From positions 1 through 51,905 of the forward strand of contig JAAYGY010000043.1 in the NCBI GenBank assembly GCA_012735575.1: DNA of 51,905 nucleotides, written 5' to 3'. The position numbers were made by a program, and so were the translations under genes. The notes beneath the pieces are model-generated. The model made no database searches. It was not told the origin of the DNA and saw only the letters and a list, made by a program, of their open reading frames with translations. How positions within the stretch are numbered: position 1 is the first letter of the stretch; each line of letters begins with the position of its first letter. Source of the stretch: Clostridiales bacterium (GTDB taxonomy: Bacteria; Bacillota; Clostridia; Caldicoprobacterales; UBA3941). Below, piece by piece: positions 5,986-33,507 of the stretch.

Positions 5986-6024
5986 GTTTGCCCAGTATTG
6001 TATGGTATTGCAGTTATGGGACTG

Positions 6025-7080: not shown

Positions 7081-7116
7081 TCTGAATAGTTCTGTTATAG
7101 GCTAAGTAATAAAACA

Positions 7117-7153
7117 AAATGCAGATGGGAACCAAAACTTCTCATCTGCATTT
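7117..7153 (-). terminator. Terminator after the four-helix membrane protein gene
   Basis: AAATGCAGATGGGAA (7117-7131) pairs with TTCTCATCTGCATTT (7139-7153), with a single G-T wobble. On the minus strand it is followed by a T-rich stretch, and it lies just past the stop at 7158. Confidence 0.65.
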
Positions 7154-7157
7154 CTAA

Positions 7158-7598: not shown

Positions 7599-7661
7599 TG
7601 ACCTGACACCCCCAAGTTTCAAATCAAATTTTTATATATCCTATATTGGTCAGTCTAATTA

Positions 7662-7703
7662 AAGCAGTGGAGTAAAATCCTTATAGATTTTTCCCCACTG
7701 CTT
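7662..7703 (-). terminator. Terminator-like hairpin after the opp operon
   Basis: On the minus strand AAGCAGTGG pairs with CCACTGCTT, and the stem is extended by AAAATC/GATTTT around a 6-nt loop. It lies 85 nt after the oppF stop. There is no long T run, so it may act in mRNA stability as well as termination. Confidence 0.5.
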
Positions 7704-7787
7704 ATAACCTTAATTCTGTGCTGTACCTATTATACCTGACAAACACAGATAACATAACCTCTATAATCTTATAATCATAATTGTATT

Positions 7788-8813: not shown

Positions 8814-8814
8814 T

Positions 8815-9807: not shown

Positions 9808-9881
9808 ATCTACACCTCGCTCTTTCGCTAATGATTTTCTCCTACCACTATGCCCCTGTTTTCAATAAAGGCCTGTATGGA

Positions 9882-11042: not shown

Positions 11043-12041
11043 CTACCTCCCTGACTCGCCGTATCTGATTCTAGGATCTGCCCAGGCCAGTAATATATCT
11101 GAAATTAGGGTTCCTAACAGGGTTAAAGATCCCAATATTAAAATAATACTTCCGGCCAGATACATATCCTGTGCCATAAGCGCCTGCATTAGCATAGGTC
11201 CGATAGTAGGTAAATTAAGTACAATAGATGCCAGGGCCTCACCAGAGAATAATGATGGTAGTGTCCAGCCTATAGTACTTAACATAGGACTAACAGCTAC
11301 ACGAATGGGGTACTTGAATAACAATTTTCTTTCTGCTACACCTTTGGATCTAGCTACCATTACATATGGCCTTTTTAATTCATCTAATAGGTTGGCCCTC
11401 ATAGTACGAATATTGCCAGCAATACCTGAGACAGCAACTACTAAAGCAGGTAGCCAAATGTGCTTGAGCAAATCCAAGAACTTGGCAAAGCTCCATGGCG
11501 CATCTTCAAACTCTGGCGAAAAAAGGCCGCTAATATATATACCAAACCTGCTATAAAGAAACCACATGAGCAAGAGAGCAAGTAGGAATCCCGGTATGGA
11601 TACACCTATAAATCCAACAAAGGTAAAAATATAGTCAAAAGCTGAATACTGCCTTACTGCAGAAAATACACCTATTGCAAAACCTATGGTCATAACAAAA
11701 ATAGTCGAGAATAGTGAAATAGCTACACTTAGGGCTAACCTTTCTTTGATAAGATCAAGCACCGGCTTATCCCATTGGAAAGATCGTCCAAAATCGCCTC
11801 GTGTAATTATGTTCTTAAGCCAAGTATAGCATCTTATATATCCCGGCTTATCCAACGCATACTGTCTGGAAAGTCTTTCTATAGCCGTTTCATCCATCAT
11901 AACACCTGAAGCTTTGAGCTTTTCTACGTATACTGTTAAAAAATCTCCCGGAGGGAGTTCGATGATAATAAATACTAAAATTGCCAAAATTAAAATCAAA
12001 GGAATCATGCCCAAAAGCCTTTTAACAATATAAGATAACAT
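11043..12041 (-). CDS. Opp-type ABC transporter permease (OppB-like)
   Basis: This 332-residue permease starts MLSYIVKRLLGMIPLIL, the usual OppB N-terminal helix. The periplasmic region begins ELPPGDFLTVYVEKLKASG, a variant I associate with Opp-type systems linked to carbohydrate loci (from memory, not tested here). The EAA-type loop (ARSKGVAERKLLFKYP) and the closing DPRIRYGESG are present. It forms the channel with the OppC-like protein. A strong hairpin separates it from the binding-protein gene upstream. Confidence 0.92.
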   Translation of the reverse strand: MLSYIVKRLLGMIPLILILAILVFIIIELPPGDFLTVYVEKLKASGVMMDETAIERLSRQYALDKPGYIRCYTWLKNIITRGDFGRSFQWDKPVLDLIKERLALSVAISLFSTIFVMTIGFAIGVFSAVRQYSAFDYIFTFVGFIGVSIPGFLLALLLMWFLYSRFGIYISGLFSPEFEDAPWSFAKFLDLLKHIWLPALVVAVSGIAGNIRTMRANLLDELKRPYVMVARSKGVAERKLLFKYPIRVAVSPMLSTIGWTLPSLFSGEALASIVLNLPTIGPMLMQALMAQDMYLAGSIILILGSLTLLGTLISDILLAWADPRIRYGESGR

Positions 12042-12063
12042 CCTTTAATCCCCTTTCTTAAAT

Positions 12064-12092
12064 CCCTGGATGGAGCCAAGCTCCATCCAGGG
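12064..12092 (-). other. Strong intercistronic hairpin between oppA and oppB
   Basis: A perfect 13-bp stem, CCCTGGATGGAGC (12064-12076) with GCTCCATCCAGGG (12080-12092), has a 3-nt loop and no following T run. It lies within the 63-bp gap between the binding protein and permease genes. Such hairpins usually protect the upstream mRNA, so the binding protein is made in excess over the membrane parts. That role is inferred. Confidence 0.7.
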
Positions 12093-12104
12093 CCAACTTT
12101 TGTC

Positions 12105-14156
12105 CTATTCGTCGTAGTAGAATACTTCTGCTGCAAAGTTTGCCATGATTTGATATCCGTTTCCAGATTCTGGCACATTCCTTATCTTGCTATTATAGAT
12201 TAGAGGAATTGCAATGTCTTCAACTGGGATAATCAGGAATAGAGATTCACCCATGAATTCCTCCCATTTTTGTAGGTTGGTTCCAACCTCGTCGAAGGTC
12301 TTACTCGATCTAACTTGGTCATATAGATCAAAGGCAGGTTTTAAATCATCTGGTGGTTCTACTCCTTCTTGACCAAAGGATACATACCATTTACGGAATC
12401 CTTCGGATACTTTTGCTCTATCATTTAAGAATACCCAGTCGATCATGTAAGGATTGGATCGTGCTACTGGTAGGTCCATCCAGGATGATATAACTACTCG
12501 TGTTTCGTCAGCTTGTTGCCTTGTGCCTAGCAAGGAACCGTCTACCTGGTTCATGGTGGTGTAAATTCCTATGTCTCTCCAGTTTTCCACGATTATTTCG
12601 ATCATAGGTATAAAGTCAGTTGATGGTGCACTGGTTTCAATCAGCAGCTCCATCCTCTTGCCGTCGGGGCGTAGTCTCCAGCCTTCAGAGTCTCTTTGAT
12701 CCAGGCCAATGCTGTCAAGGAGTTCATTTGCTTTGTCTGGATTATGTTCTCCAGGAGTAAAGTCTGATGGAGATGCTAATCCATTGTAGACTGCGTCAAT
12801 AATTTCATCCCTGTCAAGAGCCAGGTTCAAAGCTTCTCTGAATTGTCTGTTCTCTATAATTTCTGTCCATTCTCTTTCTGGATTGCTGTAGTTAAAGGTA
12901 ATTGGAATGGGGCAGTGGAAATTGTACAATCCTACTGTGTAGCCACCCTTTTCCTCATTCTCTTTATACAGAGCTATCTCTTTTACAGATATAGCTTGAC
13001 GAGCCAGGTCTGCCTGACCTCCCATTATCTCCATAGGTAGCATTTCAACAGATGCAACAGTGCTTGCTCTGATTTCATCTATATATGGTAGCTGATTACC
13101 TGCAGCGTCAACTTTGAAGTAGTATGGATTTCTTCTCAAGATAGCTGTCTGAGCATCTGGCATTTCCTCCAGAACGTAAGCTGCCAAGGTAGGACATCCG
13201 ATTTTTGTTTCGGATAGGCCGCCTCCTGCCCAGGAATACAAGCTGAACAGTCTGTACCATTCATTGTCTTCCAGACCGTTTTCTTCTAGTAAAGGCTTAA
13301 GCTCTTCCTGAGAAGTATAGTTAATGTGGAACTTCTTCATATAATGAGCAGGCTGAATTATTGGACCAGAATCCCAGGTTTGCCAGTGTAGACTCAAGGT
13401 ATAGGGGAACAAGGCATAGGATTCTTTAAACTTAATTTCAAAGGTATGCTCATCGAGAATGTTGAGCTCACAAGGTGTTCCATCAAGGTTGGATAACCAT
13501 TTGGGGAACTGTGGAGTAAGCTCTTCATTGTGTAGAACATCTTCAAATGCGAATCTTACGTCTTCAGTTGTAACTGGTTCGCCGTCAGACCATTTCAAAC
13601 CTTTTCTCATGTGGAAGACAAAGGTTTTACCGTCATCGACCATGTCAAAATCTTTTAAAACGTTTCCGAATGGTTTCTCGCCTGGTTCACCAAAGCCAGG
13701 TTGGTTAAGCAATGGCTCCCTATTAATAGCCCACCATTCTCCACCGCCTGGGCTACCAGGGTTGATAACCCTTAGAGTACCGCCATATTTACCAATTTCA
13801 AGCTCTGGCATATCCTCTAGGGGCACTTCAGTACCAGCAACATAAATCAGAGGCTCTTCTGGTAGTCTTTCTTCTACAGGTGGTAATTCACCTTTATCTA
13901 CCAGTTCTTTTAGATCTGGAGCTTCGCCATACTCCGTAATTGCTGGTTCAGCGTCTCCCTCATTATCTGGAGTATCCGCTGGTTCTTCATCATCTTGGCT
14001 ATTATTGTCTGCTACATCATTGGCTGCATTGTCTTCATTATCAACCTGTTCACTGTTATTGCCAGGTGGTTGATCTTTGCTGCCACAGCCAGATAGCGCT
14101 AGTGAAAAGACTAGAAGAAGAATTAGCGCCAGCGAAAGAATTCTTTTTGTTTTCAA
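12105..14156 (-). CDS. Opp-type solute-binding lipoprotein (SBP family 5)
   Basis: This 683-residue extracellular receptor captures the substrate for the OppBCDF system. It has a lipoprotein signal peptide with lipobox ALSGC (Cys24), then an acidic low-complexity linker rich in Asp, Glu and Asn (about 28-75). The SBP_bac_5 domain includes FVFHMRKGLKWSDGEPVTTEDV. The pre-domain segment LPPVEERLPEEPL resembles binding proteins found in glycan loci rather than classical OppA. The start is TTG at 14156 with AGGAG 9 nt upstream. An ATG six bases upstream (14162) is out of frame. It is the first gene of the operon. The substrate could be an oligosaccharide, peptide or glycopeptide. Confidence 0.9.
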   Translation of the reverse strand: MKTKRILSLALILLLVFSLALSGCGSKDQPPGNNSEQVDNEDNAANDVADNNSQDDEEPADTPDNEGDAEPAITEYGEAPDLKELVDKGELPPVEERLPEEPLIYVAGTEVPLEDMPELEIGKYGGTLRVINPGSPGGGEWWAINREPLLNQPGFGEPGEKPFGNVLKDFDMVDDGKTFVFHMRKGLKWSDGEPVTTEDVRFAFEDVLHNEELTPQFPKWLSNLDGTPCELNILDEHTFEIKFKESYALFPYTLSLHWQTWDSGPIIQPAHYMKKFHINYTSQEELKPLLEENGLEDNEWYRLFSLYSWAGGGLSETKIGCPTLAAYVLEEMPDAQTAILRRNPYYFKVDAAGNQLPYIDEIRASTVASVEMLPMEIMGGQADLARQAISVKEIALYKENEEKGGYTVGLYNFHCPIPITFNYSNPEREWTEIIENRQFREALNLALDRDEIIDAVYNGLASPSDFTPGEHNPDKANELLDSIGLDQRDSEGWRLRPDGKRMELLIETSAPSTDFIPMIEIIVENWRDIGIYTTMNQVDGSLLGTRQQADETRVVISSWMDLPVARSNPYMIDWVFLNDRAKVSEGFRKWYVSFGQEGVEPPDDLKPAFDLYDQVRSSKTFDEVGTNLQKWEEFMGESLFLIIPVEDIAIPLIYNSKIRNVPESGNGYQIMANFAAEVFYYDE

Positions 14157-15017
14157 CCCTCATCACTCCTATTTTTTTTATTTATTGCAAGACTCTAATT
14201 TTTTAGAGTCTTACATACAACATAAATTTTTATAATTCCTTTGTTTATATAACATTGGCCCTTCTATTTGAATCTAGCAACTTACCAAAGACATCTATAG
14301 AAGTGCCATAGGTTAATACTTTAAAATTTTTTGAAAATTACTAATAGGAGTTAATAATATAGTGAATCAATTAATGATGGATCAACTGGTTTCCGTAAAC
14401 AACTGTTGAAGAGACCTAAATGAAGTAAGCACGAGAAACCCCTATACATAAATACTTTTCAGGTGTTTTTACAATAAACCTCTATTAAGTAATTATAAGC
14501 TTTTTAAGCTGTATGTTCAGCCTCCAAGATCCAAAAACGGTAATAACCAGCTTTACATTCTTTCCATTGGGTTGTCTTATTATAGTTGAGCTATTTAATT
14601 TATATCAATTATCAATATATCGGTGGAATTATATCTAGGTATTATAATGTGTAGATCATATGGTCAAAACAAAGTTGTCAGTATGTTATAATTTATATAT
14701 ACAATTTATAGCAATCTATATAAACTAATGAATTGTTGTTTGTTCAATATTAATCAAGGGTATTATTCATATTTTATATATAATGTCTCTCTTGCCTAAA
14801 AATTATATCCCATTTCTATATTTATGTCAATAGAATTCAATCTATGATTTATGCCGGTATAAAAAAGTAAAAAACCTATGAAATGGCTAGACTTTATTGT
14901 AAAAACCCATCGAATTAATACCTTTCATCGTTTATTACATTTATATTAAAATTTTGTTTATAATTAATAAACAAATAAGAAATAGTTTTAATATTTATAT
15001 AAATTTACTCCATTATA
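14157..15017. other. 860-bp AT-rich intergenic region
   Basis: No convincing gene is seen. A hairpin GACTCTAA-TTTT-TTAGAGTC (14191-14210) lies in the leader of the oppA gene. The rest is very AT-rich, with short open stretches in several frames (for example a 15-codon GTG frame near 14363) that lack proper ribosome sites. It must contain the oppA promoter on the minus strand and the end of the regulator transcript. I see no known riboswitch. Confidence 0.5.
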
Positions 15018-15920
15018 TCACTGATAATAAAGTCTAACTATAATATCCTGATCATAGTTGCCAAACCCTGCGCCATATATGGTCAATCCACCAGGCTTTC
15101 CCTCTTTTTCTGATACTTCAATCTTAAAATCTAAATTTTTATGATCTATTTCTAAATCTTTTAATGTAACATTTGATAGCTTTATTCCATCCATCCAGAT
15201 CCCCTTGTGATTTATCTTCAACACCTTAAGTAAGCCGTATTGATTTATATCACTGCTCCACCAGGTGGGAGTAAATCTTCCCCTTTTGTCACCAAAATCT
15301 CCAGGACTCATCCACTGTCCTATATACTTGCCATTTATATAAAAGTTTAATCTGGATGGCCAGTTGTTATTATACCCTGGTGCTTCAGAACCGAGCTCCA
15401 TGCTTATCTCCAGCTCTTTAAGTTCCTCATTGGACCTTAGATAATTAGGTATTCTATATTCTATATAGCCCTTCATAAACCATAAAATTTTAGCATTTAC
15501 CCTCTCCACATCAAGAAAGTATCTTGGATCGTCAAAGTACCCAATAATTTTTTCATGAGTTGCCAGCCCACAAGTAGGTAATATATGAAAATCCGTATAG
15601 TGACCTACAGGTATTACTATCTCATGATATTTTCTTTGCCTGTCCATTTCTTTAGGAAAGTGGATCTCTAAACGATCTATAGCCAAACTACATAATTTTT
15701 GAATGCCACCATTGCTTTTGACCCTCTGGCTGGAGATAATTCCAGCCTTCTCTAGTTTTCTCACATGCATGGTCATAATGGCACTACTAAGCTCCAGAGC
15801 CTTTGCCAACTCCTTTATGTTTTTCGGTCCCTGGGCAAGAATTTCTATAATTCTAAGTCTCACTTTACTGGCCAGGGCTTCATAAACTGGTAACCATTCT
15901 TCACTTGCCTTAATCTTCAT
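15018..15920 (-). CDS. ArsR-type HTH regulator with a beta-rich C-terminal domain
   Basis: The first 80 residues are a winged helix of ArsR/HTH_5 type: ASKVRLRIIEILAQGPKNIKELAKALELSSAIMTMHVRKLEKAGII. The other 220 residues are unlike metal-sensing ArsR proteins and are rich in aromatic and beta-like segments (LNFYINGKYIGQW, TPTWWSSDINQYG), suggesting a jelly-roll or ligand-sensing domain. It is divergent from the arabinofuranosidase gene, with 205 bp between starts. A long-spaced inverted repeat overlaps that promoter, so it probably controls abfA and perhaps itself. The inducer may be an arabinose-containing sugar. It has no Cys/His metal site that I can see. Confidence 0.8.
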   Translation of the reverse strand: MKIKASEEWLPVYEALASKVRLRIIEILAQGPKNIKELAKALELSSAIMTMHVRKLEKAGIISSQRVKSNGGIQKLCSLAIDRLEIHFPKEMDRQRKYHEIVIPVGHYTDFHILPTCGLATHEKIIGYFDDPRYFLDVERVNAKILWFMKGYIEYRIPNYLRSNEELKELEISMELGSEAPGYNNNWPSRLNFYINGKYIGQWMSPGDFGDKRGRFTPTWWSSDINQYGLLKVLKINHKGIWMDGIKLSNVTLKDLEIDHKNLDFKIEVSEKEGKPGGLTIYGAGFGNYDQDIIVRLYYQ

Positions 15921-15996
15921 CTTTTTCTAGCTCCTTTATCTGCAAAATTGGTCAACACAATAAGAGGTGTTAATAAAATTATAAATCCCTTATATT

Positions 15997-16058
15997 AATT
16001 TGTAAAGAAAATAGAAAAAGCGCCTTGTATTCTGCCCATATTATTGACTTTACAAATT
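15997..16058. promoter_or_regulatory. Putative operator of the ArsR-type regulator: split inverted repeat
   Basis: AATTTGTAAAG (15997-16007) is exactly inverted as CTTTACAAATT (16048-16058). The centres are 51 bp apart, close to five helical turns, and the second arm overlaps the -35 and spacer of the abfA promoter. This fits two bound dimers and a DNA loop. Confidence 0.5.
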
Positions 16059-16072
16059 TATGCTAATATAAT
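16044..16072 (+). promoter_or_regulatory. Promoter of the arabinofuranosidase gene
   Basis: TTGACT (16044-16049), a 17-bp spacer and a perfect TATAAT (16067-16072) stand 54 bp before the chosen ATG. The spacer overlaps one arm of the inverted repeat, which suggests repression. Confidence 0.75.
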
Positions 16073-16125
16073 GAAATTAACATCTTTCTTACTTGTTAAT
16101 AAATTTATTAAGGGGGTATTGCTTT

Positions 16126-17604
16126 ATGAAAAACAGGCTGGTCATTAATGGGGATCTTGGCAGCACCACTGTTAACCGGAATATCTACGGCCATTTTTCA
16201 GAGCATCTGGGGCGATGCATATACGAGGGCATCTGGGTAGGTGAAGATTCTCCCATTCCTAACACCGATGGGATCCGCAATGATGTTCTGGAAGCATTAA
16301 AGAAAATGGGCATACCTGTTCTAAGATGGCCAGGTGGCTGTTTCGCCGATGAATATCACTGGAAAGACGGAGTAGGACCCAGGGAAAAACGAAAAAAGAT
16401 GATCAATACCCATTGGGGCGGTGTTGTTGAAAACAATCACTTCGGTACCCATGAATTTATGAGATTGTGCGAGCTTTTAGAGTGTGAACCCTATATCTGT
16501 GGTAATGTAGGAAGCGGTACTGTCCAGGAAATGCAGGAATGGGTTGAATACATAACCTTTGATGGAACCTCTCCTATGGCGGATTGGCGTAGAGAAAACG
16601 GCCGTGAAGAACCCTGGCGCCTAAATTTTTTTGGAGTGGGTAACGAAAACTGGGGATGCGGTGGCAATATGAGAGCTGAATACTATGCTGATGAATACCG
16701 CCGTTATCAAACCTATGTACGAAATTACGGGGAAAATCGAATCTATAAAATTGCCTGTGGACCTAGTACCGATGACTACCACTGGACAGAGGTATTAATG
16801 AGGGAAGCTGGCAATATGATGGATGGATTAAGCCTTCATTATTATACAGTTCCCGGTACCTGGCAAGCTAAAGGTTCGTCTACGGATTTTGATGAAAAAG
16901 ATTGGTTTGTTACCATGAAGAAAACCATGTATATGGAAGAGCTGGTAACCAAACATTCAACTATTATGGATAAGTATGATCCTGATAAGCGGGTTGGACT
17001 CATAGTCGATGAATGGGGAACCTGGTATGATGTAGAGCCAGGTACCAATCCAGGGTTCTTATATCAGCAAAACACCTTGCGGGACGCATTAGTTGCCGGA
17101 ATAAACCTTAATATATTTAACAACCATGCAGACAGGGTGCAAATGGCTAATATTGCCCAAACCATAAATGTGCTTCAGGCAGTAATACTGACTGAAGGGG
17201 AGAAAATGCTCAAAACTCCCACCTATCATGTATTTGAAATGTACAAGGTTCATCAGGATGCAACTTTACTGCCTATAGATCTTTATAGTGAGGATTACAA
17301 CAGTGGAGATAGTTCCATACCTCAGATAAGCAGCTCTGCATCCAAAAACAAGGATGGGTTAATCCATATCTCCCTATGCAATGTTCATCATGAAAGATCA
17401 GCAGCTCTTGATATTGAACTTAGGGGAACTGTTGCCAGCAAAGTAACAGGAAGGATTTTAACCTCGGATGATATGAGAGATCACAATACTTTCCAGGAAC
17501 CTGAAAAGGTGCAGCCTACAACATTTAATGGTTTCAAGCTTGAACAAGACAGACTTTTTGTCAATCTGCCACCCAGATCTGTAGTAGTTTTGGCTGTGGA
17601 ATAA
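16126..17604 (+). CDS. abfA: GH51 alpha-L-arabinofuranosidase (intracellular)
   Basis: This 492-residue glycoside hydrolase removes L-arabinofuranosyl side groups from arabino-oligosaccharides. The TIM-barrel domain has acid/base Glu174 in [11 protein letters not shown] and nucleophile Glu296 in [10 protein letters not shown], positions close to those of characterised GH51 enzymes. The C-terminal beta-sandwich follows, ending [12 protein letters not shown]. There is no signal peptide, so the substrate must be imported. The ATG at 16126 has a GGGGG site 9 nt upstream, and the longer frame has none. It is divergent from the ArsR-type regulator and followed after 23 bp by a small Cys-rich gene and then the glycyl-radical pair. 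Confidence 0.95.
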
Positions 17605-17627
17605 AAAACCGAAGGGGTTAATTACAC

Positions 17628-17888
17628 ATGAATAAAACGACAGATTGTAAAGGCTGTTCTGCCTCTGTCTGGGTTAAGATAGATGAAACTTATGAAAAAC
17701 TTAAAGCTACTCTGATAGATGAAAACAAGGCTGCATCCAAAGAAGTTTATGAAAACAGGTTGAAGATCTGTAAATCCTGTCCTTCCCTAATCTATGACAC
17801 CACCTGTAAACATTGCGGCTGTTTGGTCTATGCGAGAGCCTTGAACATAGATAGCTATTGCCCGGAACCTTCAGGCGGAAGATGGTAG
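17628..17888 (+). CDS. Small Cys-rich putative zinc-binding protein (DUF6171-like)
   Basis: This 86-residue protein has paired Cys motifs: CKGC at the start, ICKSC in the middle and TCKHCGC with a final Cys in YCPEP. The pattern suggests one or two zinc sites, and it resembles DUF6171 proteins of Clostridia. No function is known. It starts 24 nt after the abfA stop with AAGGGG upstream of the ATG, so the two are probably co-transcribed. A hairpin follows at 17905-17940. Confidence 0.75.
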   Translation: MNKTTDCKGCSASVWVKIDETYEKLKATLIDENKAASKEVYENRLKICKSCPSLIYDTTCKHCGCLVYARALNIDSYCPEPSGGRW

Positions 17889-17904
17889 TATATTTTAAAA
17901 TTAT

Positions 17905-17940
17905 GCCTATAAACCAGACATATGTAGCTGGTTTATAGGC
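17905..17940 (+). terminator. Terminator-like hairpin after abfA and the Cys-rich gene
   Basis: GCCTATAAACCAG (17905-17917) pairs perfectly with CTGGTTTATAGGC (17928-17940) around a 10-nt loop. The following stretch TTCTAATTTATAT is T-rich but not a clean T run, so termination may be partial. Confidence 0.55.
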
Positions 17941-17971
17941 TTCTAATTTATATAGACTCTTTAAATGAAAA

Positions 17972-25184: not shown

Positions 25185-25934
25185 ATGGCCAAAATAGGTT
25201 TACAGCTTTATTCTATAAAAGAACTTACAGAAAAAGACTTCTTTGGCAGCTTGGAAAAGGTAGCCAAGATTGGTTACCAGGGCGTTGAATTTGCAGGTTT
25301 TTTTGGTGCTCCCGCTTCAGAGTTAAAAAAAGTTTTAGATGATTTAGGAATTGTCCCTTGTGGAAGCCACACTGGAATTGACGCCCTTGAAGAAGAATTA
25401 AACAGGGTCATTGATTATAACCTGGAAATTGGGAACCAGTACATAATTTGTCCCGGTTTACCAGAACATATGAGAGATAGCTATGATGCGTATTTAAAAC
25501 TGGCCGACAAGTTCAATGAAATAGGACAAAAGTGCAAAGACCAGGGTATCCAGTTTGGCTACCATAATCACGATGTTGAATTCCAAAAATTCAACGGTGA
25601 ATATGGCCTAGATATTCTTCTCTCCAATACCCAACCAGATCTAGTTCATATGGAGCTTGATACCTTCTGGGTGGAGTATGCCGGACTTAAATCCGTTGAT
25701 TTTATGAAAAAATACCCCAAGCAACACTCATCCCTCATTCATATAAAGGATATGAAGAGCCTGGATGAGAAAATAAGTACAGAGGTTGGCAATGGTATAA
25801 TGGATTTTGTAGAAATCATCAATTTGGCAAAAGAACTGGGTACAAAATGGTATATTGTAGAACAGGAAGAATTTGAAATGCCCCAACTTGAAAGTATTGA
25901 AAAAAGTCTGGAATACTTAAATAGTATTATATAA
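25185..25934 (+). CDS. Sugar phosphate isomerase/epimerase-like TIM-barrel protein
   Basis: This 249-residue protein belongs to the AP-endonuclease-2 (xylose isomerase-like) TIM-barrel superfamily. Features include GLQLYSIKELTEKD, metal-site residues in GYHNHDVEF, MELDTFWVEYAG and LIHIKDM, and a late Glu in VEQEEFE. Members isomerise, epimerise or dehydrate sugars and cyclitols, and some cleave 3-keto-glycosides. AGGAGGG stands 9 nt before ATG. It is co-transcribed with the Gfo/Idh gene 16 bp downstream, so the two probably act in one pathway on an oxidised sugar. The substrate is unknown. Confidence 0.85.
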   Translation: MAKIGLQLYSIKELTEKDFFGSLEKVAKIGYQGVEFAGFFGAPASELKKVLDDLGIVPCGSHTGIDALEEELNRVIDYNLEIGNQYIICPGLPEHMRDSYDAYLKLADKFNEIGQKCKDQGIQFGYHNHDVEFQKFNGEYGLDILLSNTQPDLVHMELDTFWVEYAGLKSVDFMKKYPKQHSSLIHIKDMKSLDEKISTEVGNGIMDFVEIINLAKELGTKWYIVEQEEFEMPQLESIEKSLEYLNSII

Positions 25935-25950: not shown

Positions 25951-26994
25951 ATGAATAAAATTCGTATTGGAATCATAGGTGCCGGAAACATTGCACAAAA
26001 TTCTCATATCCCTGCCTATTTAAAGCAGAGTGATGCAGAAATCGTCGCTGTTTGTGATCTAAAACTGGACAGGGCTAAAGAAGTTGCAGCCAAACACAAT
26101 ATTCAATATGCTGTAGGCAGCATAGAGGAACTGGTAGCCATTGATGAAGTTGATGCCGTTAGCGTGTGCACATGGAATAATGCCCATGCATCGGCTGCTA
26201 TTGCTGCTGCTAATGCAGGTAAGCATGTTTTATGTGAAAAGCCCATGGCCATGAATGTAGAAGAGGCCGAAGCCATGAAAGAAGCAGCGGAAAAGAATAA
26301 TATAGTATTTATGATGGGCTTTACCAACCGCTTTAGGGCAGACAGCCAGGTTATAAAAGAAATTGCCGATAGCGGAAAACTGGGAGAGATCTATTACGCC
26401 AAAGCCGGTTGGCTGCGCAGAAGAGGAACTCCCCTTGGCTGGTTTACTGATCTATCCAAATCCGGAGGAGGCCCTGTTATAGACATTGGTGTTCATGCCA
26501 TCGATCTCACCTGGTATTTCATGGGTAAACCCCGTCCTGTAAGCGTTACAGCTTGCACCTATGACAAGATTGGTGACTACAAAACCAAAGGAGTCAGTCG
26601 TTGGGAAGCACTGGATACAGATAACCTGGTGTTTAACACAGAGGATTCAGCGTCCGGCTTTATCAAATTTGAAAATGGCGCTTCTATGAGCTTTGATGTA
26701 AGCTGGGCTATCAATGGTAAGGATACAGGAATATTCAGCGATATCTTTGGAACCAAGGCTGGAGCCAGCCTCAATCCCTTTACCATATATGGAGAAGAGC
26801 AAGGCTATCTCATGGATTCCTCTCCAGTTATAGAGCCTCAGGATACTTTCGCCAATGAAATCAGGCACTTTTTAGATTGTATAAAAACAGGAGAAGAGCC
26901 TATGGCATCTGCAAATGATGGAGTCATTATCCAAAAGATTCTAAACGGAATTTATGATTCCGCAAAAGAGGGTAAAGAGATTATTTTAGACTAA
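25951..26994 (+). CDS. Gfo/Idh/MocA-family oxidoreductase
   Basis: This 347-residue NAD(P)-dependent oxidoreductase has a Rossmann fold IRIGIIGAGNIAQNSHIP and the EKPMAMN motif with the catalytic Lys. The C-terminal domain has KSGGGPVIDIGVHAIDLTWY, including the substrate-binding Asp and His. AAGGAGG stands before the ATG. It follows the TIM-barrel gene in an operon ended by the terminator at 27008. Pairing of this family with a sugar isomerase is typical of inositol or 3-keto-sugar pathways. The actual substrate is not shown by sequence. Confidence 0.9.
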   Translation: MNKIRIGIIGAGNIAQNSHIPAYLKQSDAEIVAVCDLKLDRAKEVAAKHNIQYAVGSIEELVAIDEVDAVSVCTWNNAHASAAIAAANAGKHVLCEKPMAMNVEEAEAMKEAAEKNNIVFMMGFTNRFRADSQVIKEIADSGKLGEIYYAKAGWLRRRGTPLGWFTDLSKSGGGPVIDIGVHAIDLTWYFMGKPRPVSVTACTYDKIGDYKTKGVSRWEALDTDNLVFNTEDSASGFIKFENGASMSFDVSWAINGKDTGIFSDIFGTKAGASLNPFTIYGEEQGYLMDSSPVIEPQDTFANEIRHFLDCIKTGEEPMASANDGVIIQKILNGIYDSAKEGKEIILD

Positions 26995-27228: not shown

Positions 27229-28350
27229 ATGGATATTAAGCCTTGTAGACCTAAATGGAAGGGCACCATGACCGATAGGGAACGCTTTAACAATCAGATG
27301 CATTACAAACCTTTTGATCGTTGCTTTAATATGGAATTTGGCTATTGGGATGAAAATTTTAAGGAATGGTCAATATTTGTTGAAAATGGCATTACCAATA
27401 ACTGGGAGGCCGATATTTTCTTTAACTTTGACAGAATAGAAGTGGTTAGTGGGAATATTTGGATGTCTCCTCCCTTTGAATCAAAAGTAGTGGACGAAAC
27501 TGAAACTACCTATATAATGATCAATGAAGATGGTCTACTGGCTGAAGTACCTAAAAGCAGCCATGATACTATTCCCCATTACATAAAGGCCAGTATAGTT
27601 ACTCCTGAAGACTGGAAGAGGTGCAAGGAAGAAAGATTTAACCGGGATCATCCCTCCCGGAAAGTGGATATTGAGGCCATCAAAAAAGCTCATCCCACTG
27701 ACAGAGATTATCCCTTAGGAGTAAACTGTGGTTCAATGATTGGAAAAATCCGGGATATGCTTACCTTTGAAGGACTGGCCTACGCCTGTTTTGATTATCC
27801 TGACATGGTGGAAGATATGGTTGAGACCTGTTGCCAGCTAGTAGAAGATTTTCTGGACCAGGTACTGCCCCATATAGATTTTGATTTTGCATCAGGCTGG
27901 GAAGACATTTGCTTTAAGAACGGCCCCATTGTGACAGTTGATTTTTTCAAAAATGTGGTTATGCCAAGATACAAACGAATTCGGAAGAAACTGGACCAGG
28001 CTGGTATTGAGCTTTGGTATACAGATTGTGACGGAGACGTAAGGCCCATATTGCCTTATATGGTAGAAGGTGGCATCAACTGCCTATTCCCCTTTGAGGT
28101 TAACAGCTGCGCACACCCGGCAGAGTTACTAAATGAGTATGGCAAGCAGCTAAGGATAATGGGTGGCGTAGATAAAATTGAGCTGGCTAAAGGGCCGGAG
28201 GCCATAAAAGCCTATCTGGAAAGCCTTGTGCCCTTGGTAGAAAGAGGAGGCTATATTCCCTTCTGCGATCACCGCTGTCCTCCCAATGTAAAGCCTGAGT
28301 ATTACTTATATTATCTAGACCTAAAGGAAGAAATGTTTGGAATGAAGTAA
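27229..28350 (+). CDS. Uroporphyrinogen decarboxylase-superfamily protein, unknown substrate
   Basis: This 373-residue TIM-barrel protein belongs to the URO-D superfamily, which holds heme-pathway decarboxylases and cobalamin-dependent methyltransferases such as MtaA. It has the late conserved block FCDHRCPPNVKPEYYLYYLDL. At the place where methyltransferases have the zinc motif HxCGN, this protein reads YTDCDGDV, so the site differs. It is not a true HemE, because the N-terminal heme-pathway motif is absent and no heme genes are near. ATG at 27229 lies 8 nt after AAAGGAG. It is convergent with the GH38 gene. A role with modified sugars or methyl groups is guessed from context. Confidence 0.75.
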   Translation: MDIKPCRPKWKGTMTDRERFNNQMHYKPFDRCFNMEFGYWDENFKEWSIFVENGITNNWEADIFFNFDRIEVVSGNIWMSPPFESKVVDETETTYIMINEDGLLAEVPKSSHDTIPHYIKASIVTPEDWKRCKEERFNRDHPSRKVDIEAIKKAHPTDRDYPLGVNCGSMIGKIRDMLTFEGLAYACFDYPDMVEDMVETCCQLVEDFLDQVLPHIDFDFASGWEDICFKNGPIVTVDFFKNVVMPRYKRIRKKLDQAGIELWYTDCDGDVRPILPYMVEGGINCLFPFEVNSCAHPAELLNEYGKQLRIMGGVDKIELAKGPEAIKAYLESLVPLVERGGYIPFCDHRCPPNVKPEYYLYYLDLKEEMFGMK

Positions 28351-28359
28351 ACTGAACCA

Positions 28360-28396
28360 TAATGGCTATTGACCGTTCATTTATCAATAGTCATTA
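28360..28396 (+). repeat. Dispersed repeat, copy B (hairpin)
   Basis: TAATGGCTATTGA (28360-28372) pairs with TCAATAGTCATTA (28384-28396), one mismatch, around an 11-nt loop. It stands just after the URO-D-like gene, but no T run follows. The same stem occurs at 35831-35869. Confidence 0.55.
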
Positions 28397-28462
28397 TATA
28401 CAAAGTGACTAATAACCATCCAACTAGAATAACCAGTTAGTTTAATAAATGTAATGTATTTA

Positions 28463-28492
28463 AAAATCTGGGGAAAAATTTCCCCAGATTTT
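28463..28492 (-). terminator. Terminator of the alpha-mannosidase gene
   Basis: AAAATCTGGGGAAA (28463-28476) pairs with TTTCCCCAGATTTT (28479-28492) around a 2-nt loop, six bases past the mannosidase stop. It is nearly symmetrical and may work in both directions. Confidence 0.8.
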
Positions 28493-28497
28493 AATCT

Positions 28498-31400
28498 TTA
28501 ATATCCAATCTTTATAGTCTTAATTTCAAAGGGCCTAAAATCCAGTTCAAAGGTTTGGGCAGCGTTCATTGCCTCTTGAACTTCTTCCAACATATTAGTA
28601 ATCTCAATAGATTCAGGCACCCTGTCCAAAGTTACTTTTGCATGGGTATATGTGCCTTCGGCTTCATAAAGCCTCATGATGAAAGCTTTCTCATTTTCCT
28701 CGCAGCATTTAACTGTTTCTATAATAATGTTGCTGCTATCTACTTTGGCAAAGGACTCTACTTGTATCCTGCCTGGTTTTACAATTGGCTTAACATTTAG
28801 GCTATAGGCCGGTAATATAACATTTTCAGCGCTAAAACCTCCAACATGGGGCAGGAAGGAATATACGCATTCATGTACACCTACATCCCCTCTAGGATCT
28901 GGCCTGCATCCACCCTTTAATAAAGACAGCTGCATATCTGAGCCCTCTACGGAAATACCATATTTACAGTCATTAAGCAAGGCCACTCCATAACGGGTTT
29001 CGGAAAGATCCGTAAATTTATGGTTGACTACTTCAAACATGGCCTGCTCGATACTGTTATTACGGGTTGTTGGTTTTAAGCTGTGGCCAAACTGGATTTC
29101 ATGCCTTGCAAAATTACTTCTAACGGTTGTATCAAAGCTCACTTTGAGGAAACGGTGCTTATCCTTCCAGTCTATAATTGTTTCAAAATCCACCCTTGGT
29201 GTTGTGGAGTAAAATATCATATCCTGCTTTAGGGTAGACTTGTCTGAAAGCCTATAGGTACTGCGGATTCTAAATTGTACCTTTCCGTCAGATACTACCT
29301 TACGCTCCACAAGCTCTGCACAAGGTTTAAACTTCAGCTGGCTGTCCGCATCTATATCCCAGCTATCCCATGCTGTAGGAACGTCTTCTGCCATAAGGAA
29401 GGTATTAAGAGGCAGCCCATTCCCTCGCAGTTCCCTATTAACACGGGTATCTATGAAGGATTCTATAGTCCCATCCCCTGCAAAGGTAACCTTGGCAAAA
29501 GGAGTAGTTAAAACATTATCTTCATATACAAAGGCAGAATCCCCATTATCGGCTGCTCCATCCTTTTCTTTAAACTGGATTACCTTTGATCCCATTGAGG
29601 GAAGATGGAGATTGCCAATGCAAAGCATATCTTGCCCATGTATATCCTGAATAGGCTGGGCAATTAATTCCTTGTCTACAGGAACCTTACCCTCAAAATC
29701 TTTTACATAAACTACCTCGTCCCTGTCAAAGCCCAGAGTATTTATAACTGTCACGGTGTTTTCCTCGGGCTCTGCACAGATGGCATCTTGAATGAGCTGA
29801 TCGGCTTTTTCCAGCACTTCTTCCATCTCCTGATAGGACTGATCGTGAGCTTTTGCTATACAGGTACCTGGTAGGATATCATGGAACTGGTTGACCAGCA
29901 AGGTCTCCATAAGGGGTCTTATATGGGTATCCTCTGCAACAATATCTTTGTAAACTGCATTTAATACCGTTAAAAATTCTAAATCCCTCAAAGCCAGCTC
30001 AGCCTTACGGTTGTTGCGCTTGATCCTATGTTGATTGGTGAGGGTACCTCGGTGCAGCTCTAAATAAAGTTCTCCCCTGTATACAGGAGGATTTACCGAT
30101 TCTTTTTCCAGTTCGGTCATAAACTGGCCAACATTTACATGCTCAGCCCTGGGACATCCGTCCAGATCTCTTACCCGTCTGGCCATCTCTATCATCTTTG
30201 CCTCTGGACCTCCACCACCGTCACCAAAGCCATAGGCCACCAGACGTCTTCTGGATACATGCTTATCCTGAAGATAATTGCTGCTTCCCCTGCCCTCCAG
30301 GTTTTCAATCAGCGCCTTTGGATCGGGCCAGCAATGCATGGTATTAAAATGGGCAAATACCCTTGTCCCATCTATTCCCTCCCAGTAGAAGGTTTCAAAG
30401 GGGAACTTGTTTGTATCATTCCAGGACATCTTTGTTGTGAGGAAATAATCCACCCGGCAGCCTTTCATGATCTGGGGTATGGCAGCACTATAGCCGAAGG
30501 TATCCGGCAGCCAAAAACAGTTGGACGTATAGCCAAAATGTTTTTGTGTATATTTTTGACCCCAGAGAAACTGTCGGATCATGGATTCCCCAGATGTAAT
30601 ATTACAGTCACATTCAACCCATACCCCTCCGTTGGGTTCATAGCGGCCTTCCCTAATCTTTTCTCGCATCATTTCAAACAATTGGGGATAATGGCGGCGC
30701 ATCATTTCTGCGTGATAAGCCGAACTTTGGATGAATCTATATTCAGGATACTGGTCCATTAGGCTTATAACATTGGAATAGGTTCTGGCACACTTTTTTA
30801 CAGTTTCGGGAATATGCCATAGCCAGGCCGTGTCCATATGGGAATGCCCTATAATGCCAGCTATGGGTGCAGATTCTGCATTCTTTGCCTCCAGTACAGG
30901 TTTCATTATTTGCCTTGCTTTCTTTAATGCAGAACGCCAGACTTCCTCTTCTACATCTTCTACTGCATAGTAAACGGTCTTGTGAACATCTATAAGGCAA
31001 TTGATAATGTCAGCACGCCTGAAACTTAATGGATCCATCTTTTCTACCAGTTGATTAAGGACCCTTAAATCCAGGATAAAGTCCAGAATATCCTGATTCT
31101 TTGTACAGATATAAACACCATCAAAGGTATAGCGAAAATCCGATTTAACCTCAGTTTCAAATGGCTGGGTCCCAATCACGTAATGCCCTGCATAAAATTC
31201 TAAAGCTATATCTATATCTTCATCAGGGTTATAATTATCTACTAGCATATTACAGTAGTGGTTTCCACTTATAGCTGTAGTGGCATATTTGCTGGTAAAT
31301 ATACCTCCAGGAATTCCGTTAACCCAAAGCATTCCCTCAAAGCCACCTACTTTAGGCATTATGTAGATTTTTTGCCCCCTATATTCTTCAGGAAGGCTGA

Positions 31401-31620
31401 CCTTTCCTTTAAACCAGCAATATACACCCTCTCCTCCCCAGGTATCGCCCATGGCTGTATCCACAAAAAGGCTGTCATCCTGTGGAATTTGATGATACTG
31501 CTCTGCTGTCTCAAATCGCTTTACTTCTACCTCACCAATAGTAGAGAAAATATAGGGTTCAAGGGTTTCTTCCATACGGACCAGCTTTTTTAACATACGT
31601 TCTATTTGCGCTTGATTCAT
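28498..31620 (-). CDS. GH38 alpha-mannosidase (cytoplasmic)
   Basis: This 1040-residue glycoside hydrolase family 38 enzyme removes alpha-linked mannose by a retaining mechanism with zinc. The metal motif GHSHMDTAWLW gives His259, His261 and Asp263, and the nucleophile is Asp373 in LPDTFGYSA. The alpha/beta barrel is followed by a helical bundle (residues about 550-640) and a long beta-sandwich C-terminus. No signal peptide is present, so it acts on imported mannosides. GGAGG stands 11 nt before ATG. The second URO-D-like gene lies 25 bp upstream on the same strand, so the two are probably one operon. Confidence 0.93.
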   Translation of the reverse strand: MNQAQIERMLKKLVRMEETLEPYIFSTIGEVEVKRFETAEQYHQIPQDDSLFVDTAMGDTWGGEGVYCWFKGKVSLPEEYRGQKIYIMPKVGGFEGMLWVNGIPGGIFTSKYATTAISGNHYCNMLVDNYNPDEDIDIALEFYAGHYVIGTQPFETEVKSDFRYTFDGVYICTKNQDILDFILDLRVLNQLVEKMDPLSFRRADIINCLIDVHKTVYYAVEDVEEEVWRSALKKARQIMKPVLEAKNAESAPIAGIIGHSHMDTAWLWHIPETVKKCARTYSNVISLMDQYPEYRFIQSSAYHAEMMRRHYPQLFEMMREKIREGRYEPNGGVWVECDCNITSGESMIRQFLWGQKYTQKHFGYTSNCFWLPDTFGYSAAIPQIMKGCRVDYFLTTKMSWNDTNKFPFETFYWEGIDGTRVFAHFNTMHCWPDPKALIENLEGRGSSNYLQDKHVSRRRLVAYGFGDGGGGPEAKMIEMARRVRDLDGCPRAEHVNVGQFMTELEKESVNPPVYRGELYLELHRGTLTNQHRIKRNNRKAELALRDLEFLTVLNAVYKDIVAEDTHIRPLMETLLVNQFHDILPGTCIAKAHDQSYQEMEEVLEKADQLIQDAICAEPEENTVTVINTLGFDRDEVVYVKDFEGKVPVDKELIAQPIQDIHGQDMLCIGNLHLPSMGSKVIQFKEKDGAADNGDSAFVYEDNVLTTPFAKVTFAGDGTIESFIDTRVNRELRGNGLPLNTFLMAEDVPTAWDSWDIDADSQLKFKPCAELVERKVVSDGKVQFRIRSTYRLSDKSTLKQDMIFYSTTPRVDFETIIDWKDKHRFLKVSFDTTVRSNFARHEIQFGHSLKPTTRNNSIEQAMFEVVNHKFTDLSETRYGVALLNDCKYGISVEGSDMQLSLLKGGCRPDPRGDVGVHECVYSFLPHVGGFSAENVILPAYSLNVKPIVKPGRIQVESFAKVDSSNIIIETVKCCEENEKAFIMRLYEAEGTYTHAKVTLDRVPESIEITNMLEEVQEAMNAAQTFELDFRPFEIKTIKIGY

Positions 31621-31645
31621 TTTCAGAGAATCCTCCTTTGTTCTA

Positions 31646-32893
31646 TTAATAATAGGAATCTATAGTTTCCCTTACAGTTTGTTCCCAAATGATCAAATTT
31701 TCCGGCCGGTAGGATACCGTACTAATATCCTTAAGGACAAACTCATAAGGACAGCCATTTTTTATGCAGGCTTCAATGGTTCTAGATATGTCCTTTCGAA
31801 CCTCTTCTGGATCAGTCTTAACTGCTACAGCAGCAGGATTGGGTTTTCTGGCATATACATAGTCCTCTCCTATCTGCTCAGCACAGCTTTCAATATTGGA
31901 CCAGGAGCTTACTCCTATCTTCCGCATATTGGGAATTTTTTTAAGGAGATCTATCTTATTGTCCAGAGGCTCGCAGCAGCCATAATAAACCAGGCCACAC
32001 TTTTCAAATAGGGGCTTGCTGTATGCCAGATCAAACTCCTCATGAAATTCTGGGGAAATGGTTGAAAACATTTGAGCCATGCTGCGAATCCAGATATCCT
32101 TAAGCCGTACTTTGCCTCCATCATAATCTTTGGCTGGCAGATGGCTAGTATAGGGAGGTGTGCAATGAAGGTCTGATATATCGTAATCCAAAAGCCCTAA
32201 TTCCTCATATTGTTCCATAACAGATAGCTGAATCTGGGTAAACTTCTTTATTATCTTATGGGTAAACTCCGGACGGTCTACCATATCATAAAGTACATTA
32301 GATACACCCCGCAGCCTGGGAATAACATCCCAGGGTGCATGATAGATATAATAGCCACGAAGCTTAACAGGTAAAATATCCCCTAGAATTTCCTGAGCCA
32401 ATTCAACCCTGCGCTTATCTTTGCCTTCATCATTGGTTATGACAGGGCATTTAAGCTTTTCCAAATCATCCTCAGTACTTAATTGATCCAGATACTCATG
32501 AGAAACTATATGGTTGGCCTCATCGGTTACTGCTATATTTTCCTTTATTTCTAACCCATATCCGGTAGAATGAACCGACTTGTAAATTGGATAAAAGTTT
32601 TCTACTACCATATCACCCGGGAAGTATTTCCACTGAAAAAGCTTCCTTCTAAAAAAAGTTTCCATTTCCTTTGCAAGGCTGCTTTCACATCGATTCTTTA
32701 GCTGTCCGTCTATATCCATTTCATGCCAGGGTACTTCATCTATTAATACTGGAGGCCTCCCTGGTTTCAAATCATTATTATCCCGCATTCTTTTGATATT
32801 CTCCTGCTGAATATCCAAGGCAGCAACTTCAGCATACTCTTTGGCCAATTCCCTAAGAATATTTTTTTCATAGCTTGTAACTTTCATACCCAT
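31646..32893 (-). CDS. Second URO-D/MetE-like superfamily protein, unknown function
   Basis: This 415-residue protein is a distant URO-D/methionine-synthase-like TIM barrel, unlike the one at 27229 except in fold. It has the block YYGCCEPLDNKIDLLKKIPNMRKIGVSSW, where family methyltransferases carry zinc-binding Cys/His. Only the two Cys are seen here. Such proteins are common in glycan loci of Lachnospiraceae and related Clostridia, but no function is established. A start at ATG 32893 is used, and another ATG two codons on is equally possible. It is followed by the mannosidase and preceded by the HD hydrolase, all on the minus strand. Confidence 0.7.
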   Translation of the reverse strand: MGMKVTSYEKNILRELAKEYAEVAALDIQQENIKRMRDNNDLKPGRPPVLIDEVPWHEMDIDGQLKNRCESSLAKEMETFFRRKLFQWKYFPGDMVVENFYPIYKSVHSTGYGLEIKENIAVTDEANHIVSHEYLDQLSTEDDLEKLKCPVITNDEGKDKRRVELAQEILGDILPVKLRGYYIYHAPWDVIPRLRGVSNVLYDMVDRPEFTHKIIKKFTQIQLSVMEQYEELGLLDYDISDLHCTPPYTSHLPAKDYDGGKVRLKDIWIRSMAQMFSTISPEFHEEFDLAYSKPLFEKCGLVYYGCCEPLDNKIDLLKKIPNMRKIGVSSWSNIESCAEQIGEDYVYARKPNPAAVAVKTDPEEVRKDISRTIEACIKNGCPYEFVLKDISTVSYRPENLIIWEQTVRETIDSYY

Positions 32894-32910: not shown

Positions 32911-33507
32911 TTAATCTCTCTCTAAAATCCCCATTCTAATGGAATCCTCAACCATTTCCTCTACCAGTTCCCATAAGTCTGGCGCACCTTCCTTTACAAT
33001 AAAGTTGCGTTCCAGAACCTTATCACTCTTTATTCCATACTTAACCCATGTATGGCCTTTCGTTAGATAGTTGCATATAAGGGGCTGTATCCGGTCCAAA
33101 GAGGCAGCAAAAAGGGCTTCCTGGGTTTTTCTTTCCTCAAACTCATCCCACAGGGCTCTAAAATCCTGACTTTGGTCTGGGGGTAGTATACTAAAAAGCT
33201 GCCGTGCTGCTAAAAGCTCCCTTTCAGCCTTGTCCAAATTGGCTTCTTCGTCATAGCAAAAGGTATCACCTGCGTAGATTTCCACCAGATCATGAATCAG
33301 TAACATCTTTAATACTTTGGTAATATTCAAATCCTTCTTTGGGGAATATTCATGTAAAACCATGGCCATCAATGCTAAATGCCATGAATGCTCTGCATCG
33401 TTTTCCTGCCTTGATCCATCCATCAACAAGGTTTGCCTATAGATTTGTTTAAGCTTATCTATTTCTATGATAAATTCAATTTGCTTTTTTAATCTTTCCT
33501 TATCCAT
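32911..33507 (-). CDS. HD-domain phosphohydrolase (YfbR-like)
   Basis: This 198-residue HD-superfamily hydrolase has the metal motif His40 (NDAEHSWH), His72-Asp73 (LLIHDLVEIYAGD) and a later Asp (DRIQPL). This layout fits the HD_3 group with 5'-nucleotidase YfbR and related dNMP or sugar-phosphate phosphatases. GAAAGG stands about 9 nt before ATG. It lies 17 bp upstream of the URO-D-like gene and 23 bp after the 51-residue membrane protein gene, so it probably belongs to one transcript with them. The substrate is unknown. Confidence 0.82.
   Translation of the reverse strand: MDKERLKKQIEFIIEIDKLKQIYRQTLLMDGSRQENDAEHSWHLALMAMVLHEYSPKKDLNITKVLKMLLIHDLVEIYAGDTFCYDEEANLDKAERELLAARQLFSILPPDQSQDFRALWDEFEERKTQEALFAASLDRIQPLICNYLTKGHTWVKYGIKSDKVLERNFIVKEGAPDLWELVEEMVEDSIRMGILERD

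What the first reader, a model, noticed from the sequence alone, without database searches (positions are those of the whole stretch)
27229..32893. Two different URO-D-superfamily proteins flanking a GH38 mannosidase
Neither is a heme-pathway HemE by its sequence or neighbours. Both depart from the HxCGN zinc motif of corrinoid methyltransferases (YTDCDGD in the first, YYGCCE in the second), and no corrinoid protein is encoded nearby. Their presence in a glycan locus suggests unknown chemistry on sugars, such as demethylation of O-methyl mannosides or a decarboxylation.
Basis: partly seen in the sequence, partly recalled or inferred. Interest (0 to 1): 0.62.

Follow-up and report, generated by a model that had tools for sequence, protein, structure and literature searches.

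The report
Corrinoid-linked enzymes in a mannosidase locus
Two odd relatives of a heme-pathway enzyme, beside a mannose-cutting gene, most likely strip methyl groups from sugar-type compounds and hand them to a vitamin-B12 protein encoded elsewhere in the genome, which would make such systems part of how anaerobes digest methylated glycans.

Summary
P1 (27229-28350 +) and P2 (31646-32893 -) are two distant URO-D-fold proteins flanking a GH38 alpha-mannosidase (28498-31620 -). Neither resembles HemE closely and neither has the HxCGN motif. The inference "no corrinoid protein nearby, so unknown chemistry" does not hold genome-wide. The same genome encodes, elsewhere, one stand-alone corrinoid protein (CP) with its RACo activase, and a methyl-H4folate:corrinoid methyltransferase. 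In a 341-genome class sample, 52 of 54 P2 genomes and 18 of 20 P1 genomes carry this CP, against 22% and 31% of the others. A GH38 control reaches only 59%. P2-family genes form operons with CP, an MtaA-type URO-D and RACo in two families. P1 is divergent from CP in one genome. In another family CP, DUF2284, a P1-like URO-D, a GH78-type rhamnosidase and a P2 relative are consecutive on one strand. Best explanation: both are corrinoid-dependent methyltransferases (MT I) working in trans with a shared CP hub, probably demethylating O-methyl sugars or glycosides. The corrinoid link is well supported for P2, moderately for P1. The substrate is inferred from glycosidase neighbours only. This is a new variant of a known kind.

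The parts
27229..28350 (+). P1: URO-D-superfamily protein, 373 aa from the likely start. Probable corrinoid-dependent MT I. Conserved D277-C278-D279-G280-D281, E301, D358-H359 (numbering from 27196; subtract 11 for the 27229 start)
   Evidence: Pfam, AF2 model and PDB fold search, conservation in 81 sequences, linkage to CP in L277, L278 and a P1-like gene in L280, co-occurrence
28498..31620 (-). GH38 alpha-mannosidase, 1040 aa
   Evidence: Pfam PF01074/PF07748/PF09261/PF17677
31646..32893 (-). P2: divergent URO-D-fold protein, 415 aa. Probable corrinoid-dependent MT I; 25 bp upstream of GH38 on the same strand
   Evidence: AF2 model and PDB fold search, alignment, operons with CP-MtaA-type URO-D-RACo in L275 and L276, co-occurrence
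32911..33507 (-). HD-domain protein (HD_3/YfbR-like), 17 bp upstream of P2 and probably co-transcribed; conserved beside P2 in the nearest relatives
   Evidence: Pfam; L313 and L314
27006..27046 (+). GGGAGCTG...CAGCTCCC stem followed by TTTTT after the Gfo gene, suggesting that P1 is a separate transcription unit
   Evidence: read directly from the sequence; the pattern scan did not list it, its loop being longer than the scan allows
28463..28492 (+). bidirectional terminator-like stem between P1 and GH38 (convergent genes)
   Evidence: terminator-like sites overall no more numerous than in shuffles; sequence
25185..25934 (+). xylose-isomerase-like TIM barrel protein (AP_endonuc_2), context gene
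25951..26994 (+). Gfo/Idh/MocA oxidoreductase, context gene; a homologue adjoins P2 in the same-genus genome G021
   Evidence: L313
24182..25102 (-). AraC-family regulator, divergent from the AP_endonuc_2-Gfo pair

Best explanation
P1 and P2 are substrate-specific methyltransferases (MT I) of the UroD superfamily. Each takes a methyl group from a small methylated compound, most likely an O-methyl ether on a sugar or glycoside released from a glycan (in this locus possibly an O-methylated mannoside), and passes it to Co(I) of a small stand-alone corrinoid protein. In this genome that protein is encoded on another contig (C68) with its RACo reductive activase and a PocR-type regulator. The methyl group would then go to tetrahydrofolate through the methyl-H4folate:corrinoid methyltransferase on contig C29, or to homocysteine through the split methionine synthase on C58. 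One corrinoid protein would serve many MT I enzymes scattered through glycan loci. Shown: fold, sequence families, co-occurrence with the corrinoid protein, physical linkage in other genomes, presence of the partner genes. Inferred: methyl-transfer activity, the sugar substrate, the acceptor.
For: (1) URO-D fold for both, with MtaA and HemE as nearest solved structures. (2) Same-sample survey of 341 class genomes: CP in 52/54 P2 genomes against 64/287 without P2 (Fisher 3e-26), and in 18/20 P1 genomes against 98/321 (1e-7). The three genomes lacking CP are 61-86% complete. Among genomes at least 90% complete and at most 5% contaminated all 34 P2 genomes carry CP. By family: P2 29/29 (p 3e-8), P1 11/12 (p 0.02). 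GH38 as a glycan-degrader control: 54/92 carry CP; P2 stays significant within GH38+ and GH38- strata (8e-11, 1e-9). (3) 44/44 P1 genomes examined, in several phyla, have a B12-binding_2 domain, and most have a stand-alone CP homologue. (4) Operons P2 - CP - MtaA-type URO-D - RACo in two families (L275, L276). (5) Locus L280: CP, DUF2284, P1-like URO-D (31%), GH78-type rhamnosidase and P2 relative (46%) consecutive on one strand, with PocR, RACo and an MtaA-type URO-D alongside. (6) P1 divergent from CP in L277; P1, interrupted, beside the HydA-RACo-PocR-CP cluster in L278. (7) Own genome: CP and RACo on C68, methyl-H4folate:corrinoid methyltransferase over its curated cut-off on C29, split MetH on C58. 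(8) Of 15 own PF01208 proteins only one has the MtaA-like HxCG...C pattern; the others have HSDG, HSCG, DxDG or similar, mostly with H at the last ligand position. (9) URO-D-type genes adjoin GH38 repeatedly: three of four own GH38 loci, both sides in L363, and L342, L343, L397; in loci not picked for adjacency, 6/23 in CP+ genomes against 0/17 in CP- genomes within 6 kb.
Against: No activity is known for any close homologue. P1's neighbours are diverse, including diphosphate-dependent phosphofructokinase, GH4, Gfo/Idh/MocA and AraC genes, so its substrate is open. Within the order nearly every genome has the CP, with or without P1 (29/30), so the P1 link is weaker than the P2 link. The co-occurrence tests are not fully phylogeny-corrected. 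The CP could primarily be the missing B12 module of the split MetH. Glycosidase neighbours include GH38, GH78/106-like, GH4 and GH31, so O-methyl mannose is not singled out. Two genomes of one genus (G017, G018) have the CP cluster but no pterin-binding methyltransferase.
Confidence: 0.55

Rival explanations
1. P1 and P2 are corrinoid-dependent methyltransferases, but for non-sugar donors (methyl-sulfur or methyl-selenium compounds, methoxy-aromatics, methylamines), and their place in a glycan locus is incidental.
For: Characterised UroD-superfamily methyltransferases act on methoxy-aromatics and haloalkanes (PMC13222342) or are proposed for methyl-S/Se (PMC10418091). P1 is often solitary, in many different contexts.
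Against: Repeated neighbours of P1, P2 and related own-genome genes are glycosidases, sugar importers and sugar kinases. URO-D-type genes overlap or lie within about 30 bp of GH38 on the same strand in L358, L363 and the window.
Confidence: 0.2
2. P1 and P2 do corrinoid-independent chemistry on sugars (isomerisation, elimination or decarboxylation) using a hard-ligand metal site. P1 has D277/D279, E301 and H359 where MtaA-type proteins have H, C, (E) and C.
For: Thiolate ligands of the MtaA type are replaced by D-x-D-G, E and H in P1. Neighbouring AP_endonuc_2 and Gfo/Idh/MocA proteins often work on keto-sugars (general knowledge).
Against: Presence tracks the corrinoid protein far better than a glycan-degradation control does, and both families have members inside corrinoid clusters.
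Confidence: 0.15
3. The co-occurrence is indirect: the corrinoid protein is needed for the split methionine synthase and simply marks lineages that also carry URO-D expansions.
For: CP is near universal in this order regardless of P1, and the split MetH lacks a B12 domain.
Against: Physical linkage of P2-family and P1-type genes with CP in several families, which is not expected from a bystander. No URO-D was found within 6 kb of GH38 in CP- genomes (0/17).
Confidence: 0.08
4. They are HemE-like decarboxylases of a tetrapyrrole or other acid.
For: Foldseek and VIA rank HemE structures at the top or near it.
Against: No hemE model is reported for either protein; sequence identity to HemE structures is 10-17%; no heme gene seen nearby.
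Confidence: 0.02

Closest known systems
UroD-superfamily corrinoid MT I: aromatic O-demethylases MtvB, OdmB, VdmB, MtoB, and chloromethane methyltransferase CdmB
   Same: Superfamily; corrinoid protein, reductive activase and methyl-H4folate methyltransferase in the same genome; zinc motif not required (CdmB, PMC13222342)
   Different: Genes sit in glycan loci away from the corrinoid protein; P1 has conserved polar and acidic residues at the positions examined, whereas the CdmB cavity is described as mainly aromatic. No direct comparison with OdmB, VdmB or CdmB sequences was made
MtaA/MtbA/CmuA and the Mlp proteins of type 1 mlp gene clusters (PMC10418091)
   Same: Homologous fold; MtaA-type URO-Ds lie in operons with P2-family genes (L275, L276)
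   Different: P1 and P2 lack HxCGN...C; P1 scores 27 bits against a cut-off of 235 for mtaA_cmuA, P2 has no hit
HemE, uroporphyrinogen decarboxylase
   Same: Nearest solved fold (P1 Z 22.5, rmsd 3.8, 308 aligned; P2 Z 18.5, rmsd 4.0, 292 aligned)
   Different: 10-17% identity, no hemE model hit, unrelated gene context
MetE, cobalamin-independent methionine synthase
   Same: Related barrel (Z 11-12)
   Different: Single barrel; weaker match; no MetE model reported for P1 or P2

Membership tests
UroD superfamily (PF01208 clan) | URO-D barrel fold / profile match | tested here: met
   P1 PF01208 40 bits over 23.9; P2 below the cut-off by sequence but fold Z 18.5 to HemE; P1-P2 profile match E 1e-7
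HemE | NCBIfam hemE (TIGR01464) equivalog match | tested here: not met
   not among hits of either protein at E 0.1
MtaA/CmuA subfamily | NCBIfam mtaA_cmuA (TIGR01463) over cut-off | tested here: not met
   P1 27 bits against 235.4; P2 no hit
MtaA/CmuA subfamily | HxC...C zinc-thiolate motif | tested here: not met
   alignment with MtaA-type URO-Ds of corrinoid operons: P1 DxDG + H, P2 YYGCCE + LKD
Corrinoid-dependent MT I (functional class) | Cognate corrinoid protein and reductive activase in the genome | tested here: met
   CP and RACo on G000 C68; CP co-occurrence
Corrinoid-dependent MT I (functional class) | Gene linkage of family members with corrinoid protein and activase | tested here: met
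   P2 family in L275, L276, L280; P1 in L277 and, interrupted, L278; P1-like in L280. Not in the window itself
Corrinoid-dependent MT I (functional class) | MT II (methyl-CP:H4folate methyltransferase) in the genome | tested here: met
   G000 C29, NF005719 377 bits over 259
Corrinoid-dependent MT I (functional class) | Methyl transfer from donor to Co(I) | not testable with these tools
   needs biochemistry
Type 1 mlp gene cluster (PMC10418091) | two or more Mlps, corrinoid protein and Ram in one directon, no H4folate methylase within 20 kb | tested here: not met
   no corrinoid protein or Ram seen in the window; the G000 C68 CP cluster has no URO-D in the 15 kb read
GH38 | GH38 N, middle and C domains | tested here: met

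The most novel reading that the evidence does not exclude
A general anaerobic glycan O-demethylation network: one corrinoid protein with its activase acts as a hub for many UroD-superfamily methyltransferases (P1, P2 and further divergent classes), each placed in a glycan locus and specific for one O-methylated sugar, feeding methyl groups into the folate/methionine pools. P1 would be the enzyme for one very widespread methylated substrate, spread across many phyla.
Probability: 0.4. Interest if true: 0.8.

Novelty: new variant of a known kind. Interest (0 to 1): 0.6.

Why it matters
O-methylated sugars are common in plant, algal, fungal and bacterial glycans (general knowledge), but no corrinoid-based route for removing sugar O-methyl groups turned up in the literature searched here. 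If these proteins do it, many 'uroporphyrinogen decarboxylase family' annotations in glycan-degrading anaerobes become a testable set of sugar demethylases, and a methyl-carbon source for folate, methionine or acetate in digesters, sediments and guts. The P1 family is a good first target: very high conservation (suggesting one substrate) and many phyla.

Tried and rejected
Heme pathway: no hemE model hit. Conserved operon for P1: 80 loci with up to 8 kb flanks show no consistent partner beyond close relatives; recurring neighbours are AraC regulators, diphosphate-dependent PFK, GH4, Gfo/Idh/MocA and other URO-Ds, each in a minority. Cobalamin or other riboswitch near these genes: none by Rfam in the window or in L157, L275-L278. 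P1 against CP within the order: no contrast, because nearly all genomes carry the CP. Literature searches for UroD-type or corrinoid sugar demethylation found no report. Sequence relatives in the PDB: none by phmmer; weak profile matches to HemE and MtaA for P1 only. 4-O-methyl-glucuronate was considered as P1's substrate from general knowledge (GH4 neighbours, xylan degraders) but not tested.
Full report
What is there. P1 (27229-28350, +; AGGAG just upstream of the ATG) and P2 (31646-32893, -) flank a GH38 alpha-mannosidase (28498-31620, -). P2 and GH38 are on one strand 25 bp apart, with an HD-domain gene 17 bp upstream of P2. P1 is convergent to GH38, with a terminator-like stem between them. 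A GC-rich stem with a T run follows the Gfo gene upstream of P1 (read; not listed by the scan), so P1 looks like its own transcription unit. P1 is a PF01208 member; P2 falls below that model's cut-off. Predicted structures of both (pLDDT 93 and 95) have the URO-D barrel: P1 to HemE Z 22.5 (rmsd 3.8, 308 aligned) and MtaA Z 19.8 (rmsd 4.4, 311 aligned); P2 to HemE Z 18.5 (rmsd 4.0, 292 aligned) and MtaA Z 16.1 (rmsd 4.0, 281 aligned). The two profiles are homologous to each other. Neither hits the hemE model.

Families. P1 orthologues (70-91% identity among the 80 loci kept, median pairwise identity 74%, 132 near-invariant positions) occur in records labelled Bacillota/Firmicutes, Armatimonadetes, Chloroflexi, Planctomycetes, Lentisphaerae, Kiritimatiellaeota, Verrucomicrobia and others, mostly MAGs. 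Across a sample of these genomes P1 is more conserved (median 77% to the window) than the corrinoid protein (median 58%). Their neighbours are diverse. P2 has four members in the own genome and occurs in 54 of 341 class genomes. The own genome (2.6 Mb) has 15 PF01208 proteins, and further divergent classes were seen (below).

Motifs. Aligned with MtaA-type URO-Ds from corrinoid operons (YHNCGN...SSGC), P1 shows D277-x-D279-G, E301 and D358-H359. Most own-genome paralogues show HSDG, HSCG, HTDG or DxDG, mostly with H at the last position; only one own protein (C45) keeps HxCG...C. P2 has YYGCCE and LKD. A metal site is plausible but not shown; P1-MtaA alignments in this region are weak, so exact ligand equivalence is uncertain. 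Loss of HxC...C does not exclude corrinoid methyl transfer: CdmB, an experimentally characterised UroD-superfamily methyltransferase, needs no zinc (PMC13222342).

The corrinoid link. The own genome has one stand-alone corrinoid protein, with RACo activase, a hydantoinase-A-like protein and a PocR/AraC regulator, on contig C68, a methyl-H4folate:corrinoid methyltransferase over its curated cut-off on C29, and a methionine synthase without a B12 domain on C58. In the same sample of 341 class genomes the corrinoid protein (E <= 1e-45) is present in 116. It is present in 52/54 with P2 (against 64/287 without; Fisher 3e-26) and in 18/20 with P1 (against 98/321; 1e-7). The P1 or P2 genomes lacking it (G073, G121, G179) are 61-86% complete. 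Because genomes in a family are not independent, I also counted families: 29/29 P2 families and 11/12 P1 families include the corrinoid protein, out of 52/82 overall (p 3e-8 and 0.02). As a control for glycan-degrading lifestyle, GH38 was surveyed in the same sample: 54/92 GH38 genomes carry the corrinoid protein, and P2 remains strongly associated in both GH38 strata, P1 moderately in the GH38+ stratum only (0.003; 0.06 in GH38-). Inside the order the corrinoid protein is nearly universal, so no contrast is possible there.

Physical linkage. L275 and L276 (two different families) hold P2-family gene - corrinoid protein - MtaA-type URO-D - RACo, contiguous on one strand: the P2-family protein sits where an MT I would. 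L277 has P1 divergent from the corrinoid protein about 290 bp apart. L278 has the HydA-RACo-PocR-CP cluster, then an AraC gene, a P1 copy interrupted by a stop, and two more URO-Ds. L280 has PocR - corrinoid protein - DUF2284 - P1-like URO-D (31% to P1) - GH78-type rhamnosidase - P2 relative (46%) on one strand, with RACo and an MtaA-type URO-D beside it. That locus puts both kinds of protein and a glycosidase together with the corrinoid machinery.

Substrate. URO-D-type genes recur beside GH38: the window; L358 (URO-D overlaps GH38 by one base); L356 (URO-D, dapA-like gene, GH38); L363 (a URO-D on each side of GH38 within 31 bp, same strand); L342 and L343; L397. Some of these were found because of the adjacency; among loci not chosen for it, 6/23 in corrinoid-protein-positive genomes and 0/17 in negative ones have a URO-D within 6 kb (recounted from the list; the p-values printed there include the pre-selected loci). 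Other related URO-Ds adjoin GH78- and GH106-like genes, GH4, GH31, GH51-like genes, sugar importers and kinases (GH106- and GH51-like naming is by inspection of sequence, not by a model). O-methyl sugars or glycosides are therefore the best guess for the methyl donor, and an O-methyl mannoside the natural guess for this locus. This is inference from neighbours.

Confidence. That P2 is a corrinoid methyltransferase: about 0.75. That P1 is: about 0.65. That the donors are methylated sugars or glycosides: about 0.6 if the former is true. The figure given for the best explanation (0.55) should be read as confidence in the corrinoid MT I reading with a sugar-type donor as its leading but less certain part.

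Caveats. No activity has been measured. E-values and Fisher tests treat genomes as independent; the family counts only partly correct this, and genome and family lists were transcribed by hand from the tool tables. Gene calls in fetched loci are mechanical ORFs. I did not compare P1 and P2 directly with OdmB, VdmB, MtvB or CdmB sequences.

Noticed in passing
L154 (own genome C92) 1634-17958: Locus with two sets of sugar-importer-like genes, nucleoside hydrolase, ribokinase-like gene, ADP-ribosylglycohydrolase, GH4-like gene, a P2-family gene and three URO-D-type genes; suggests methylated ribose or nucleoside catabolism as a testable idea.
   Followed up: partly
L154:10739-11806, L347:5542-6618, L350:7445-8509, L412:5416-6474: A third divergent URO-D-like class (about 355 aa, N-terminal 'FWE..I.DRPPV' type); no Pfam hit for the L154 member; lies beside the corrinoid protein in L412 and beside P1 in L347 and L350.
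   Followed up: partly
L318:553-2268 (own genome C58): Methionine synthase with homocysteine and pterin domains but no B12 domain, so it presumably borrows the stand-alone corrinoid protein; similar lengths in other genomes of the order.
   Followed up: partly
L402:4611-6380: 590 aa protein with URO-D and corrinoid-binding parts in one chain (a CmuA-like arrangement), next to RACo and a homocysteine methyltransferase-like gene.
   Followed up: partly
L278 about 10716-11960 (genome G018): P1 orthologue interrupted by a stop beside the corrinoid-protein cluster; this genus (G017, G018) shows no pterin-binding methyltransferase.
   Followed up: no
L308:1529-3798 and L312:6618-8887: A threonine-aldolase-like gene (named by inspection) directly upstream of a P2-family gene in two genomes; a different kind of substrate is possible for that subgroup.
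   Followed up: no
L106, L119, L130, L138 upstream of P1: Diphosphate-dependent phosphofructokinase gene directly upstream of P1 in several PVC-group genomes.
   Followed up: partly
window 218-384, - strand: Two tRNA genes by Rfam.
   Followed up: no
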